64,000 nt of DNA. Origin: Arundinibacter roseus (GTDB taxonomy: Bacteria; Bacteroidota; Bacteroidia; Cytophagales; Spirosomataceae). The notes under the pieces were generated by a model that ran no database searches, was not told the origin of the DNA, and saw only the letters and a list, made by a program, of their open reading frames with translations. Made by a program: the position numbers and the translations under genes. Below are positions 1-4,684 of the stretch, in pieces (position 1 is the first letter of the stretch; each line of letters starts with the position of its first letter). The DNA lies in NCBI RefSeq assembly GCF_004348825.1, contig NZ_SMJU01000003.1, positions 62,001 to 126,000 on the forward strand. The letters are read 5' to 3'.

Positions 1-523
1 CTTCGATGTATTGGCCCAGAATGTCACTCCCTTCCGGAATCGGCAGCATCGAATCACCCGTGGTAGGAAACATCCGGTAGGTATGTCCGGTGGGTAGGTT
101 GGGCAGCCGGAACTTAGGCAATGCCGCCAGAAACTCCGGATCGGCATAGCCGCTGCGGTAGCCCGCCTTGGCCTTGACGGGCACGTACTCAATGTTTTCG
201 TGATTCTCCCCATCGACCGTAATGGCCAGCACGCGCAGGTTGCTGCCGGTCATGTACAGATCATTTCCAGCTTCCAGCTCGCGTATTTTTAACTCCGAGA
301 GCTGCGCCAAATTTACTTTCAGGAGCGTGTCTACACTGATTTTGAAGAAGTTGGAAAAATTAATATAGTCTTCCGGCTGCGGCGCTTTGGTTTGCCCGTT
401 TTCCAGCGCATTCAGCTTTGAGCGCGTCAGCGTGAGCTTTTCGGCTAATGTTTCCTGACTCAATCGCTTGCGTTCGCGCAGGAATTTGATGTTCGTCCCA
501 AAAAATATTTTTTGCTCATTCAT
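1..523 (-). CDS. XRE-family / S24 LexA-like transcriptional regulator (3' end outside window)
   Basis: A cytoplasmic DNA-binding repressor of the LexA/CI type, read on the minus strand from ATG at 523 and cut by the window edge after 174 codons. Residues 9-70 form an XRE-type helix-turn-helix (ERKRLSQETLAEKLTLTRSKL). The C-terminal half looks like a S24 autopeptidase: an Ala120-Gly121 pair inside VKAKAGYRSG fits the self-cleavage site, and Ser158 in TTGDSML fits the nucleophile. The catalytic Lys would lie beyond the edge, so self-cleavage cannot be confirmed. It diverges from dinB with a perfect palindrome between them, which suggests that it represses both itself and the polymerase operon until DNA damage triggers cleavage. 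That regulatory role is inferred from family and layout. Confidence 0.85.
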   Translation of the reverse strand, partial: MNEQKIFFGTNIKFLRERKRLSQETLAEKLTLTRSKLNALENGQTKAPQPEDYINFSNFFKISVDTLLKVNLAQLSELKIRELEAGNDLYMTGSNLRVLAITVDGENHENIEYVPVKAKAGYRSGYADPEFLAALPKFRLPNLPTGHTYRMFPTTGDSMLPIPEGSDILGQYIE

Positions 524-550
524 AATACTTTGTTATTATTACGATCAACA

Positions 551-573
551 CTTTGACACTAATCGTGTCAAAG
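551..573. promoter_or_regulatory. Palindromic operator between the S24 regulator and dinB
   Basis: CTTTGACAC-TAATC-GTGTCAAAG is a perfect 9-bp inverted repeat with a 5-bp spacer, midway in the 73-bp divergent gap. It is the obvious binding site for a dimeric XRE/S24 repressor. It does not match the E. coli or B. subtilis SOS boxes. Confidence 0.7.
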
Positions 574-576
574 GTA
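569..576 (-). promoter_or_regulatory. Possible -7 promoter element of the S24 regulator gene
   Basis: On the minus strand this reads TACCTTTG, an exact match to the Bacteroidota -7 consensus TAnnTTTG. It overlaps the palindrome, so transcription would start inside the operator, as expected for autorepression. No clear TTG -33 element was seen. Confidence 0.4.
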
Positions 577-596
577 AAATAAAATTTCATAAAACC

Positions 597-1736
597 ATGG
601 AAAGACAGGTCGTACATTGTGATTTGGATACTTTTTTTGTATCCGTAGAAAGACTTTTAAACTCATCGCTGACGGGCAAGCCCGTACTCATTGGCGGCAG
701 CAGCGACCGGGGCGTGGTGGCCTCGTGCAGCTACGAAGCCCGGCAGTTTGGTGTACACAGCGCCATGCCCATGCGCATGGCCCGGCAGCTCTGCCCGGAA
801 GCAATCGTGGTGCGGGGCGATATGGATCAGTACAGCAAATATTCAACCATGGTAACGGCCATTATATCCGAAGCCGCGCCGTTGGTCGAGAAAGCGAGTA
901 TCGACGAGCATTACATTGACATCACGGGCATGGATCGTTTTTTTGGCTGCTGGAAATGGACGCAGGAACTGCGCCACAAGATCATGCACGAAACGGGTCT
1001 ACCGATTTCGTTTGGGCTGTCGGTCAATAAAACGGTATCCAAAATCGCTACGGGCGAGGCCAAGCCCTGCGGGGAGAAAAAGGTCGATCAGGGCACCGAA
1101 AAAGTATTTCTGGCGCCACTTTCGATTCGCAAGATTCCGTCTATTGGAAACAAAACCTACATGCAACTGCGCAACATGGGGATTTCCAAAGTAGCCACGT
1201 TGCAACAAATGCCTGTGCTGACCATGCAGAAAGTGCTGGGAGCTAATGGTGTAACGATCTGGTCGAAAGCCAATGGCCTGGACGATGCGCCCGTGCAGCC
1301 TTTTTCGGAGCGAAAATCGATTGGCAAGGAACATACCTTTCAGCGCGACACCATCGACATTCCGGTGTTGCACAAGACTCTCCACGTCATGCTCGATGAA
1401 CTAACCTTTGAACTGCGCCGCCAAAAACGCCTGACCTCCTGCCTGACGCTCAAAATCAGGTACAGCAATTTTGATACGCATACCATTCAGATGCACGTAG
1501 CGTATACGTCTTCCGAGCGGGTTTTGTCCGAAAAAGCCCTCGAACTTTTCGGCAAACTTTACTCCCGTCGGATGCTCATCCTGCTGATCGGTGTCAAGCT
1601 CAGCGGACTGGTGCAGGGGAGTCATCAGGTGGATTTGTTTGAGGATACCGAAACAGACCTTAATCTGTCGCAGGCCCTCGACCTGCTGCGCGCTCGCTAC
1701 GGGATCCGGTCGGTGGTGCGGGGCATTAGCTTCTGA
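597..1736 (+). CDS. dinB: Y-family DNA polymerase IV (DinB-like)
   Basis: An error-prone translesion polymerase of 379 aa. The ATG at 597 begins MERQVVHCDLDTFFVSVE, the canonical start of the family; the reading frame is open further upstream, but that part runs back through the operator and into the divergent regulator. Metal ligands are Asp9 and Asp103-Glu104 (SIDEHYIDIT). Helix-hairpin-helix residues (KIPSIGNKTYMQLRNMG) and a little-finger domain follow. Near the C-terminus, QVDLF (344-348) fits the beta-clamp-binding motif, so recruitment to the sliding clamp is likely. The stop is 5 nt before the dnaE start, so the two are surely co-transcribed. With the S24 regulator they form a damage-response mutagenesis cassette. 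ImuB would be an alternative name, but the intact catalytic residues favour an active DinB. Confidence 0.9.
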   Translation: MERQVVHCDLDTFFVSVERLLNSSLTGKPVLIGGSSDRGVVASCSYEARQFGVHSAMPMRMARQLCPEAIVVRGDMDQYSKYSTMVTAIISEAAPLVEKASIDEHYIDITGMDRFFGCWKWTQELRHKIMHETGLPISFGLSVNKTVSKIATGEAKPCGEKKVDQGTEKVFLAPLSIRKIPSIGNKTYMQLRNMGISKVATLQQMPVLTMQKVLGANGVTIWSKANGLDDAPVQPFSERKSIGKEHTFQRDTIDIPVLHKTLHVMLDELTFELRRQKRLTSCLTLKIRYSNFDTHTIQMHVAYTSSERVLSEKALELFGKLYSRRMLILLIGVKLSGLVQGSHQVDLFEDTETDLNLSQALDLLRARYGIRSVVRGISF

Positions 1737-1741
1737 GGCTT

Positions 1742-4684
1742 ATGCTACTCAATCTACATAGCTATTACAGCCTGCGCTACGGCACCATGAGCATCGGGGA
1801 GCTTGTGGAGGGAATGCTCCAAAATGGCTACGACACAGCCGTTTTGACCGATATCAATAATAGCACGGGTGTGCTCGAATTTGTGAAAGCCTGCCGCGAG
1901 CGGGGACTCTATGGCCTGGCCGGGATGGAATTTCGCCGGGCTGATGAGCTCCTTTTTATTGGGGTGGCGATCAACGAAACCGGCTTTCAGGAACTGAACG
2001 AACACATGACGCAGGCCAACCGTGCGCATACGGAGCCGCCTGATACGGCGCCGGAGTTCAGGCAGGTGTACGTGATTTATCCCTTTGGTAAAAAACAACC
2101 CGCCGACCTGCGCGACTTTGAGTACATCGGGGTGCCCCACATGGTTCTGAACCGCCTGTCGTTTGTACCTCCCGCCGAGCTGGATCGCTACGTGATCTGG
2201 AATCCGGTGAGTTTTCAGAGCCGGGAGTCGTTTCGGCTGCACACGCAGCTGCGGGCCATTCAACACAACCTGCTGATAAGTCAGCTTGGGGTGGAGCAAT
2301 GCGCGGATGCTTCCCATTGTTTTATTCCAAAAATAACTCTGATGAGTCTTTACCGCGATTTTCCGCAGCTAATCCGGACAACCGTACGGCTCATTCAGAA
2401 CTGTTCTTTTTCCTTTGATTTTAAGGAAGTTAAAAATAAAAAAACCTTTACCGGAAATCTTTATGATGACAAACAACTCCTCTACCGCTACGCCATGGAT
2501 GGCTTGCAGCGCCGCTACGCCCACGACCACATAGAAGCCCGCGAGCGCATTGCCCGGGAATTGGAAATCATTGATAACCTGCATTTTAGTTCTTATTTTC
2601 TTATTACCGATGATATTTGCCGGTACGCCGCCCGGCGTAATTTTCACTACGTGGGCCGGGGCAGCGGGGCCAATTCCATTGTTGCCTATTGCCTGGGAAT
2701 TACCGACGTGGACCCCATCGAGCTGGATTTGTACTTTGAGCGCTTTTTGAATCCCAAACGCAAAATTCCCCCCGATTTTGACATCGATTTTAGCTGGGAT
2801 GAACGGGATGAAATGTACGACTATATTTTTCGCCGCTACCAAACGGGCCACACCGCCCTGATGGGCGCCATGAGTACGTTTCGCTCGCGCTCCATTATTC
2901 GTGAACTGGGAAAGGTGTACGGACTGCCCAAAGCTGATATTGATCGCCTGGTGCATGAGCCCGACAATATCCTGAACCGCAACGAAATCACCGACCTGAT
3001 TCTGTCGGTGTATTCACAAATGGCCGATTTTCCCAATCAGCGAACCATTCATGCCTCAGGCGTGCTGATTTCCGAAAAACCCCTTACGTGCTACTCCGCA
3101 TTGGACTATCCGCCCAAGGGCCTGCCAACGGTTCAGTTTGATATGTATACGGCGGAGGATATTGCGTTTGAAAAATTCGATATTCTTTCGCAGCGCGGCA
3201 TCGGCCACATCAAGGAGGCCGTTCGACTGATTGAGAAAAATCAGGGGAAATGGGTGGATGTATCTACTCCAAAGCCTTTTTTTCAGGACCCTCAGCTGGC
3301 AACTCAGCTCCGCAACGCCGATACCATCGGGTGCTTTTATATTGAAAGTCCCGCGATGCGGCAGCTGCTCTCCAAGCTGCGGTGCGACAACTACCTCACG
3401 CTCGTGGCGGCAAGTTCCATCATTCGGCCGGGTGTATCGTCGAGTGGCATGATGAAAGCGTACATTGAAAGGCATCATAACCCGGACGCGGTGCAGTATC
3501 TACATCCAGTCATGGAACGCGAACTCAAAGAAACCTACGGGGTCATGGTGTATCAGGAAGACGTTATGCGCATCGGCCACCACTACGGCGGGCTCGACCT
3601 GGCCGATGCGGATGTGCTGCGGCGGATGATGTCGGGCAAAAGCCGCAGTAAAAAACATCTGGAAGAAATCGAGGATAAGTTTTTTGCCAACTGCCGGCAG
3701 AAAGGCTACGCCGAAGAAACGTCGCGGGAAATATGGCGGCAAATGGAAAGTTTTGCCGGATATAGCTTCAACAAGGCTCACAGCGCTTCCTTTGCCGTGG
3801 AAAGTTACCAAAGTCTTTATCTGAAAACGTACTTTCCCCGGGAATTTATGGTGGCGGTTCTCAACAACTACGGAGGCTTCTACCCCCGCATGGTATACGT
3901 CAACGAAGCCCGCAGGGCAGGAGGGATTATCTGTTTACCTTGTGTCAATAAGAGCGAGTACCGAACCAGCATCTACGGGCGCGACATTTATCTGGGTTTT
4001 GACTGCCTGCTGAATCTGGAAGCAAAACTCGGGCAGCAGATTGCCCGGCACCGAAGAGAGCACGAAGAATTTTCGGGCCTGGAAAATTTCGTCATGCGTA
4101 CGGGGGCAGGCCTCGAACAGCTGATTATCCTGATTCGGGTCGGGGCGTTTCGGTTTACGGGCATTGGCAAAAAAGAACTGCTGTGGGAAGCACACCTGTT
4201 GATGAATTCTTCCGCCGTCGTGCCGAAAGGGCAGCCACTTTTTGAGCACCGGGAAGCGCAGAAACCTACCTTACCGCCCCTGGAAACTTCGCCGCTGGAA
4301 GATCTGTACGATGAGCTGGAACTCCTGGGTTTTCCTGTAAGTAAACCCATGTTTACCCTGACCAAAAGCGACTACACCGGCAACGTGGTAGCCCAAAGCA
4401 TGAAAAATCACGACGGGCAGCTTGTGCGAATGGTTGGAGAGTTTGTATGCTCCAAAACCGTTCCGACCCGCAACGGCAGCTACATGAAATTTGGTACATT
4501 TCTTGACATAGAGGGCAATTTCTTCGATACGGTTCACTTCCCGCCTTCCCTCAAAAGGTACCCGTTAGCGGGTCACGGTGTTTTTTTGATTGAAGGTAAA
4601 ATCATCACCGAGTTTGGCCATCCCTCGCTCGATGTACGAAAAATTGGCCGGATGCCGCTGTGGCCCGATCCCCGGAGTGAATAG
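1742..4684 (+). CDS. dnaE: DNA polymerase III alpha subunit-like polymerase (short DnaE, probably error-prone)
   Basis: A C-family replicative-type polymerase of 980 aa, shorter than the roughly 1,160 aa of E. coli DnaE. The order is an N-terminal PHP domain, a polymerase core with PDFDIDF (344-350, two catalytic Asp), a helix-hairpin-helix region, and a C-terminal OB-fold (about 890-950). The PHP metal site looks eroded: the usual HxHS near the N-terminus is NLHS, and the usual TDHG is TDIN. Proofreading or pyrophosphatase activity from this domain is therefore unlikely. It starts 5 nt after dinB, under the same regulator. This placement matches the role of DnaE2/ImuC in other phyla, where an accessory DnaE works with a Y-family polymerase in damage-induced mutagenesis. 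The chromosome should carry a separate full-length replicative dnaE. Confidence 0.9.
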   Translation: MLLNLHSYYSLRYGTMSIGELVEGMLQNGYDTAVLTDINNSTGVLEFVKACRERGLYGLAGMEFRRADELLFIGVAINETGFQELNEHMTQANRAHTEPPDTAPEFRQVYVIYPFGKKQPADLRDFEYIGVPHMVLNRLSFVPPAELDRYVIWNPVSFQSRESFRLHTQLRAIQHNLLISQLGVEQCADASHCFIPKITLMSLYRDFPQLIRTTVRLIQNCSFSFDFKEVKNKKTFTGNLYDDKQLLYRYAMDGLQRRYAHDHIEARERIARELEIIDNLHFSSYFLITDDICRYAARRNFHYVGRGSGANSIVAYCLGITDVDPIELDLYFERFLNPKRKIPPDFDIDFSWDERDEMYDYIFRRYQTGHTALMGAMSTFRSRSIIRELGKVYGLPKADIDRLVHEPDNILNRNEITDLILSVYSQMADFPNQRTIHASGVLISEKPLTCYSALDYPPKGLPTVQFDMYTAEDIAFEKFDILSQRGIGHIKEAVRLIEKNQGKWVDVSTPKPFFQDPQLATQLRNADTIGCFYIESPAMRQLLSKLRCDNYLTLVAASSIIRPGVSSSGMMKAYIERHHNPDAVQYLHPVMERELKETYGVMVYQEDVMRIGHHYGGLDLADADVLRRMMSGKSRSKKHLEEIEDKFFANCRQKGYAEETSREIWRQMESFAGYSFNKAHSASFAVESYQSLYLKTYFPREFMVAVLNNYGGFYPRMVYVNEARRAGGIICLPCVNKSEYRTSIYGRDIYLGFDCLLNLEAKLGQQIARHRREHEEFSGLENFVMRTGAGLEQLIILIRVGAFRFTGIGKKELLWEAHLLMNSSAVVPKGQPLFEHREAQKPTLPPLETSPLEDLYDELELLGFPVSKPMFTLTKSDYTGNVVAQSMKNHDGQLVRMVGEFVCSKTVPTRNGSYMKFGTFLDIEGNFFDTVHFPPSLKRYPLAGHGVFLIEGKIITEFGHPSLDVRKIGRMPLWPDPRSE

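What the first reader, a model, noticed from the sequence alone, without database searches (positions are those of the whole stretch)
1..4684. S24-type repressor, dinB and short dnaE form a compact mutagenesis cassette with its own palindromic operator
The sequence shows a divergent LexA-like regulator, a perfect 9-bp inverted repeat (551-573), dinB and dnaE 5 nt apart. The layout parallels the imuA-imuB-dnaE2 mutasome of other phyla but without imuA and with a catalytically complete DinB. The operator overlaps a TAnnTTTG element of the regulator. That this is a damage-controlled mutasome of Bacteroidota is an inference.
Basis: partly seen in the sequence, partly recalled or inferred. Interest (0 to 1): 0.6.

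Follow-up and report, generated by a model that had tools for sequence, protein, structure and literature searches.

The report
LexA-like switch for swappable mutagenesis genes
This stretch is a self-contained set of genes in which a damage-cleavable repressor most likely keeps two error-prone DNA-copying enzymes off through one short DNA site; relatives use the same kind of switch for a different mutagenesis machine or for pigment genes, so the parts are of a known kind but the exchange is worth testing.

Summary
An S24/LexA-like repressor (279 aa, running off the window start) diverges from dinB (597-1736) and a short dnaE (1742-4684). Between them lies the perfect dyad CTTTGACAC-N5-GTGTCAAAG (551-573), found once in the genome at 0 or 1 mismatches.

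The kind is published: non-canonical LexA of Bacteroidetes (PMC8565304) and the DnaE2B-PolY-RecA module (PMC6511836, PMC12926913).

New here, by comparison:
(1) The repressor belongs to a subfamily with a TTTG...CAAA dyad 42-52 bp upstream of its start. Two residues of its recognition region (38, 44) go with arm bases 5 and 6 in every symmetric site.
(2) The same subfamily and operator class sit opposite alternative modules: imuA-imuB in 47, a carotenoid operon in 24 and dinB-dnaE in 6 of 80 named loci.
(3) The cassette's DnaE is closer to Pedobacter and Parapedobacter (67-69%) than to most of its own family (44-52%), while replicative DnaE1 shows the reverse, which points to horizontal transfer.

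No further target of this operator was seen. Binding, damage induction, cleavage and mutagenesis are inferred. New variant of a known kind.

The parts
1..523 (-). S24/LexA-like repressor, N-terminal 174 of 279 aa (gene continues beyond the window start, L002:7685-8524)
389..427 (-). recognition region of the repressor, residues 33-45 (TRSKLNALENGQT); residues 38 and 44 covary with the operator
161..166 (-). codons of Ala120-Gly121, predicted self-cleavage bond; Ser158 codon at 50-52; Lys198 lies outside the window
   Evidence: invariant in the 13 aligned subfamily members
551..573 (.). operator CTTTGACAC-TAATC-GTGTCAAAG
529..549 (-). degenerate second operator-like copy 23 bp from the first, on the repressor side
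569..576 (-). TACCTTTG, -7-type element of the repressor promoter (promoter reading recalled); its TTTG is the operator arm
   Evidence: TAnnTTTG recurs at this place in the dinB, imuA and crt groups
597..1736 (+). dinB, Y-family polymerase, 379 aa, catalytic acidic motifs present
1626..1640 (+). QVDLF, clamp-binding-type motif in DinB
   Evidence: a Q..[LMI][FL] motif in 77 of 78 DinB tails
1662..1733 (+). C-terminal RecA-N-terminus-like tail of DinB (...LLRARYGIRSVVRG...)
   Evidence: my pattern fits 57 of 78; resembles own RecA N-terminus (LEKLDKTYGKGTVMRL) by eye
1742..4684 (+). short dnaE, 980 aa, polymerase aspartates kept, PHP metal ligands lost (HxH to NLH, TDH to TDI)

Best explanation
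A compact, self-regulated translesion-synthesis cassette. The S24 repressor binds the single dyad as a dimer. The dyad overlaps the -7-type element of its own promoter and lies 23 bp upstream of the dinB start, so one bound dimer can shut both divergent units. After DNA damage, RecA filaments would trigger self-cleavage at Ala120-Gly121 (Ser158/Lys198 dyad), freeing the operator. DinB (active, with clamp-binding and RecA-mimicking tail) and the short DnaE, which has lost its PHP metal site, would then be made together and act at lesions, most likely as a DnaE2B-PolY-RecA mutasome. The repressor subfamily and operator class are a portable switch that also serves imuA-imuB-dnaE2 and, in Dyadobacter, carotenoid genes; the cassette has most likely moved between Bacteroidota families. 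Shown by sequence: anatomy, operator conservation, residue-base covariation, different partners, transfer signal. Inferred: binding, cleavage, induction, mutagenesis, complex formation.
For: Anatomy. Operator unique in the genome. Perfect site in 2 of 222 family genomes, both at this junction, with equal arms and a changed spacer in the second. Cleavage bond and Ser/Lys invariant in 13 of 13 aligned members. Of 88 subfamily rows, 76 have a dyad scoring 10 or more of 12 between -54 and -40; shuffled upstream regions reach that in 0.4%. Residue 38 fits arm base 5 in 81 of 81 symmetric sites and residue 44 fits base 6 in 85 of 85. Divergent S24 in 50 of 68 family dinB loci. Partners in 80 named loci: 47 imuA, 24 carotenoid, 6 dinB, 3 undetermined. 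A DnaE ORF lies in 43 of the 47 imuA loci. Transfer: Pedobacter cassette DnaE 69% against DnaE1 55%; Parapedobacter 67/53; same-family G005 50/72. Published relatives were bound by EMSA at N5-spaced dyads and induced by mitomycin C (PMC8565304, sections 15 and 16 read).
Against: No expression, binding or mutagenesis data for this genome. The genome has two further S24-type regulators (C19, 39-41% identity; C39, degenerate) that could bind instead. The tree behind the covariation is weak: 4 and 7 changes on the best tree but only 2 and 2 independent pairs on well-supported branches, below any significance. The residue classes were drawn after looking, many rows are close kin, and residue 44 alone also separates base 5 completely, so the pairing of residue 38 with base 5 is not unique. 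The rule fails in distant S24 repressors (L264, L266). 18 of 68 family dinB loci lack a recognisable neighbouring S24 (one is cut by a contig end). The repressor's S24 domain is only just over the Pfam cut-off, and its NCBIfam hits, all below cut-off, are to other HTH repressors. The cassette DnaE falls below the NCBIfam cut-off for error-prone DnaE2 (470.7 of 939 bits). The subfamily is patchy: in a phylum sample of 395 genomes only 2 had a match below E 1e-100.
Confidence: 0.8

Rival explanations
1. The cassette is a subordinate part of a wider SOS regulon run by another S24 regulator of the genome, and the local repressor only tunes it.
For: Three S24-type genes in the genome; two umuDC operons and a PolIV gene beside the C19 regulator. 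PMC8565304 reports multi-operon regulons in related families.
Against: No site at up to 3 mismatches lies near recA (C41:221925), either umuDC operon or PolIV. The C19 paralog has, by eye, Gly-Gly at the cleavage position, and no matching dyad was seen in its promoter.
Confidence: 0.2
2. The polymerases act separately: DinB as an ordinary Pol IV and the short DnaE as a back-up synthesis enzyme, with no joint complex and no special mutagenic role.
For: DinB keeps its catalytic motifs, so it does not need DnaE as ImuB does. No complex was tested.
Against: dinB and dnaE stay close neighbours in many relatives. The DinB tail keeps clamp and RecA-like motifs. The DnaE PHP metal site is lost. The repressor class is shared with imuA-imuB-dnaE2.
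Confidence: 0.25
3. The dyad is mainly a promoter or mRNA feature and its conservation reflects the TAnnTTTG promoter element rather than repressor binding.
For: One arm's TTTG is part of a recurrent TAnnTTTG element. Between this genome and Persicitalea the flank on the repressor side is conserved too, so that pair alone is a weak footprint.
Against: Symmetric arm bases outside that element change together with two repressor residues. The spacer differs in Persicitalea and across genera the flanks vary.
Confidence: 0.05
4. The similarity of the cassette to those of Pedobacter, Parapedobacter, Mucilaginibacter and Taibaiella reflects ancient paralogy with loss elsewhere, not transfer.
For: The family has a second, diverged dinB-dnaE lineage, so duplication and loss is possible.
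Against: The six cassettes form a clade with 100% SH-aLRT within the dinB-linked DnaE, and their identities equal or exceed those of DnaE1 for the distant genera, within a point for Taibaiella. No flanking gene of this cassette was found beside the others in the stretches held.
Confidence: 0.25

Closest known systems
Non-canonical LexA (S24, CI-type HTH) repressors of Bacteroidetes, PMC8565304; above all the Elizabethkingia anophelis repressor with site TTAC-AAATT-GTAA and an error-prone polymerase gene opposite it
   Same: CI-type HTH plus S24 domain, Ala-Gly/Ser/Lys, N5-spaced dyad in its own promoter, error-prone polymerase opposite.
   Different: Operator TTTGACAC-N5-GTGTCAAA is not GGA-N5-TCC or CTAA-N5-TTAG. 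The paper left Cytophagaceae homologs unassigned. Here I see only one divergent pair under the operator.
DnaE2B-PolY-RecA module of Bacteroidetes, PMC6511836 and PMC12926913
   Same: Active Y-family polymerase plus short DnaE2-type polymerase without ImuA or ImuB; RecA-like tail. PMC3919608 (passages) reports reduced PHP and thumb domains in Bacteroidetes DnaE2.
   Different: Those papers, in the passages read, do not treat the operator or the exchange of modules under one repressor subfamily.
lexA-imuA-imuB-dnaE2 mutagenesis cassettes (Erill and colleagues 2006, recalled; not held)
   Same: Self-regulated error-prone polymerase cassette with its own repressor, reported as mobile (recalled).
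   Different: Repressor is CI-type, not winged-helix LexA; ImuA and ImuB are absent; DinB is active.

Membership tests
Non-canonical LexA of Bacteroidetes | CI-type HTH joined to an S24 peptidase domain | tested here: met
   HTH_3 33.5 bits (cut-off 23), Peptidase_S24 23.7 bits (cut-off 23.3, marginal); phage 434 repressor among structure hits at 8.6e-4
Non-canonical LexA of Bacteroidetes | Ala-Gly cleavage bond and Ser-Lys dyad | tested here: met
   A120-G121, S158, K198 invariant in 13 of 13
Non-canonical LexA of Bacteroidetes | N5-spaced dyad in its own promoter | tested here: met
Non-canonical LexA of Bacteroidetes | one of the two published dyads (GGA-N5-TCC, CTAA-N5-TTAG) | tested here: not met
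   operator is TTTGACAC-N5-GTGTCAAA; the paper itself reports other diverged dyads
Non-canonical LexA of Bacteroidetes | repressor of a multi-gene SOS regulon including recA or umuDC | tested here: not met
   no site at up to 3 mismatches near recA, umuDC or PolIV; weaker sites are not excluded
Non-canonical LexA of Bacteroidetes | induction by DNA damage | not testable with these tools
   needs expression data
DnaE2B-PolY-RecA module | active Y-family polymerase with clamp and RecA-like motifs beside DnaE | tested here: met
   motifs by pattern and eye
DnaE2B-PolY-RecA module | DnaE distinct from DnaE1 and from ImuAB-linked DnaE2, PHP metal site lost | tested here: met
   three separate clades, 100% SH-aLRT each; PHP motifs
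DnaE2B-PolY-RecA module | membership in DnaE2 as a family | tested here: inconclusive
   below NCBIfam cut-offs (PRK05673 511 of 1002, PRK05672 470.7 of 939 bits); a tree of three groups cannot root it
DnaE2B-PolY-RecA module | physical complex with RecA | not testable with these tools
   needs biochemistry
ImuA-ImuB-DnaE2 mutasome | ImuA and catalytically dead ImuB in the operon | tested here: not met
   the operon is dinB-dnaE with active DinB; Pfam IMS finds four Y-family genes in the genome: this dinB, a PolIV and two umuC. ImuA was not sought genome-wide by its own profile.

The most novel reading that the evidence does not exclude
This S24 subfamily is a portable damage sensor with an evolvable address. 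Two residues of its recognition region set arm bases 5 and 6, so copies in one genome can be insulated from each other. The same sensor has been joined repeatedly to rival mutasomes (imuA-imuB-dnaE2 or dinB-dnaE2B) and, in Dyadobacter, to a CarH-like/crt carotenoid operon, which would make pigment synthesis part of a DNA-damage response.
Probability: 0.38. Interest if true: 0.72.

Novelty: new variant of a known kind. Interest (0 to 1): 0.5.

Why it matters
PMC8565304 described Bacteroidetes SOS control only in 2021 and left homologs in Cytophagaceae unassigned. This case gives a defined operator class, a testable residue-to-base rule, and a natural experiment: one repressor class facing either ImuAB-DnaE2 or DinB-DnaE2B suggests that the two modules are functional equivalents, which can be tested by swapping them. 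The Dyadobacter carotenoid loci would extend damage control beyond DNA repair.

Tried and rejected
Genome-wide regulon: at up to 3 mismatches the sites look like background (37 against 22 control); none lies at recA, umuDC or PolIV. Across 222 family genomes, 17 have a site at up to 1 mismatch, about as many as show the reversed control (16 by my count). Of 18 fetched site loci (L001, L003, L090-L105) only three (own, G016, G022) lie beside an S24 gene, so a one-mismatch match alone means nothing.

Dyad finder: a lax threshold (8 of 12) is met by 17% of shuffled upstream regions, so I rely on scores of 10 or more (76 of 88 rows; 0.4% of shuffles).

Universal recognition code: rejected. It fails in distant repressors (L264 has A38 with base A; L266 has A44 with base T).

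Spacer as part of the site: own TAATC is GATTA in Persicitalea when read in the dinB direction, the reverse complement; other spacers vary, so I make no claim.

Root of the DnaE tree: not resolved, three groups only.

Pfam gave no hit for ImuA; NCBIfam ImuA_translesion matched at 2.8e-14 but below its cut-off. A structure search by sequence gave nothing useful. The structure-prediction tools were not used.
Full report
1. What is there. The window opens inside a gene for an S24/LexA-like repressor on the minus strand (start codon at 523; full length 279 aa, read from the assembly). On the plus strand follow dinB (597-1736) and, 5 nt later, a 980-aa dnaE (1742-4684). Between them is CTTTGACAC-TAATC-GTGTCAAAG (551-573). 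Beyond the repressor lies a SNF2-type helicase gene, and downstream of dnaE a convergent 600-aa ORF. Neither was found beside six related dinB cassettes or the imuA locus of SCN 52-12, in the stretches held.

2. Is the dyad more than chance? Shuffling the 73-bp intergenic region gave 9-bp arms with a 5-bp spacer in 22 of 20,000 trials, and with any spacer of 0-10 in 146. The 8-bp-arm pattern occurs once in 5.83 Mb, with no other site at 1 mismatch. In 222 genomes of the family it occurs perfectly in 2, this one and G016, both between the S24 gene and dinB. The G016 repressor protein is identical to that of Persicitalea jodogahamensis. There the arms are unchanged while the spacer reads GATTA instead of TAATC; the flank on the repressor side is also largely conserved, so this pair alone is a weak footprint.

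3. The proteins. The repressor has a CI-type HTH and an S24 domain, the latter just over its Pfam cut-off. Its AKAG cleavage sequence, Ser158 and Lys198 are invariant in 13 aligned subfamily members. DinB has the SIDE acidic motif, a clamp-type QxxLF motif (a similar motif in 77 of 78 related tails) and a tail resembling the N-terminus of RecA (57 of 78 by my pattern). The dnaE product keeps the polymerase aspartates (PDFDIDF, FDILS) but has lost PHP metal ligands (alignment to solved DnaE). It forms a clade apart from DnaE1 and from the DnaE of imuA-imuB operons (42 sequences, namely own, 18 of 34 other dinB-linked, 11 of 43 imuA-linked and 12 DnaE1; 4 rows of unassigned partner were left out). 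PMC12926913 (passages and section 20 read) describes such a group in Bacteroidetes as DnaE2B-PolY-RecA. My NCBIfam scan does not by itself prove DnaE2 membership: the error-prone DnaE2 model is below its cut-off, and only the general polc superfamily model is above.

4. Conservation of the arrangement. In the family, 75 of 150 searched genomes have a dinB ortholog at E below 1e-100 by my count. I examined 68 of those 75. In 50 of 68 an S24 gene lies divergently upstream; 18 show none, one of them cut by a contig end. Apart from own and G016, these S24 genes are 27-41% identical and show various other dyads or none.

5. The repressor subfamily. A search of named genomes with the subfamily alignment (best 80 of 258 kept) found 58-71% identical repressors in Dyadobacter, Persicitalea, Pedobacter, Mucilaginibacter, Sphingobacterium, Taibaiella, Cyclobacteriaceae and Prolixibacteraceae, among others. 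Opposite them lie imuA (with imuB) in 47, a CarH-like MerR gene and/or crtI in 24, dinB in 6, and none recognised in 3. In 43 of the 47 a DnaE ORF was held in the locus. One imuA locus (L159) was checked by profile: ImuA_translesion 2.8e-14 (below cut-off), IMS 5.4e-14, error-prone DnaE2 1360 bits over a cut-off of 939. On a tree built without the recognition region, the own repressor lies in an 88-row clade (SH-aLRT 99). In that clade dinB partners occur at five places on the best tree, though well-supported branches force only two changes of the dinB label over the whole tree. The subfamily is patchy: in a phylum sample of 395 genomes only 2 matched below E 1e-100, own and G555, which also faces dinB.

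6. Operator and recognition. In 88 subfamily rows I sought the best TTTG...CAAA dyad starting between -54 and -40 from the repressor start. One row (L153) ends at the contig edge; in the other 87 the start falls at -42 to -52, 51 of them at -49. The score is 10 or more of 12 in 76 of them, which shuffled regions reach in 0.4% (8 or more in 17%). At arm base 5, residue 38 N or S goes with A, and A or Q with T, in 81 of 81 symmetric sites; the other 6 have unequal arms, with an A in one of them. At base 6, residue 44 Q or A goes with C, and H, R, N, K or V with T, in 85 of 85; 2 are asymmetric. Among residues 1-74, residue 44 taken letter by letter separates both bases completely, and residue 38 separates base 5 completely with fewer classes; so the pairing of 38 with base 5 is the simpler reading, not the only one. 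The changes number 4 and 7 on the best tree, but only 2 and 2 independent pairs lie on well-supported branches, too few for significance, and the classes were set after seeing the data. Many rows are close kin. The rule does not reach distant S24 repressors: L264 and L266 break it. Repressors in one genome can carry different operators, for example Dyadobacter luteus L149/L152 (TTTGATAC) and L204 (TTTGATAT). The arm TTTG doubles as part of TAnnTTTG upstream of the repressor, and a weaker copy of the site often lies 23 bp further toward the start codon. The promoter reading of TAnnTTTG is recalled knowledge of Bacteroidota promoters.

7. Transfer. Identity of the cassette DnaE and of replicative DnaE1 to this genome's: Persicitalea 72 and 85%; same-family G005 50 and 72%; Mucilaginibacter 69 and 66%; Taibaiella 64 and 65%; Parapedobacter 67 and 53%; Pedobacter 69 and 55% (DnaE1 found). 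Full-length cassette DnaE of other family members is 44-52% identical. G111, of genus g32 (Dyadobacter, as I infer from a shared contig length), has DnaE1 84% but cassette DnaE 40% over 429 aa. Six cassettes form a 100% clade in the DnaE tree. Horizontal transfer is the simplest reading; paralogy with loss is the rival.

8. Mechanism. Shown: anatomy, unique operator, conserved placement, covariation. Inferred from PMC8565304 (abstract, passages, sections 12, 13, 15 and 16 read): repression by a dimer, RecA-driven self-cleavage, induction by mitomycin C. Its Elizabethkingia example, bound at TTAC-AAATT-GTAA and facing an error-prone polymerase gene, is the nearest experiment. Inferred from PMC6511836 (passages) and PMC12926913: a joint complex of DinB, DnaE and RecA.

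9. Novelty. The kind is known. I found no paper describing the residue-base rule, the exchange of modules under one repressor subfamily, or the carotenoid link, in the listings of searches of an open-licence library that lacks most subscription papers. PMC8565304 contains neither 'recognition helix' nor 'carotenoid' nor 'Dyadobacter' in its main text; its supplements were not read.

Noticed in passing
L176:1313-7319 (Dyadobacter alkalitolerans); MerR and/or crtI opposite the repressor in 24 of 80 named loci: An S24/LexA-like repressor faces a CarH-like MerR gene (below cut-off), then phytoene desaturase (CrtID, over its cut-off), a phytoene/squalene synthase, isopentenyl-diphosphate isomerase, an unassigned ORF and lycopene cyclase, with a dyad TTTGATAT-N5-ATATC between: a possible damage-controlled carotenoid operon. 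Three such repressors aligned (L109, L110, L122) keep the cleavage bond and Ser/Lys, though Pfam missed the S24 domain of L109 at 0.001. The full operon was annotated in one locus only.
   Followed up: partly
G000:C19:11351-12037 (L050, L043): A second S24 repressor (39-41% identical) near a PolIV gene, with an ORF between that looks by eye like a REP-associated transposase; the repressor has, by eye, Gly-Gly at the cleavage position.
   Followed up: partly
G000:C39:352581-353573 (L044, L051): A third S24-like regulator (339 aa) that by eye lacks the catalytic Ser and Lys and gives no Peptidase_S24 hit at 0.001 in Pfam.
   Followed up: no
L137 and L138 (G000 C39 and C9): Two umuDC operons in the genome flanked by the same two ORFs in nearly identical copies, as if a block had been duplicated.
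   Followed up: no
window 560-564 (operator spacer) and L013: The 5-bp operator spacer in Persicitalea is the exact reverse complement of the one here, with identical arms.
   Followed up: no
L230, L231 (Pedobacter B4-66, Parapedobacter tibetensis): DnaE1 open frames there are 1479-1492 aa against 1188-1253 aa in the other unsplit DnaE1 frames; possibly the exonuclease-fused DnaE1 of some Bacteroidetes described in PMC3919608 (passages).
   Followed up: no
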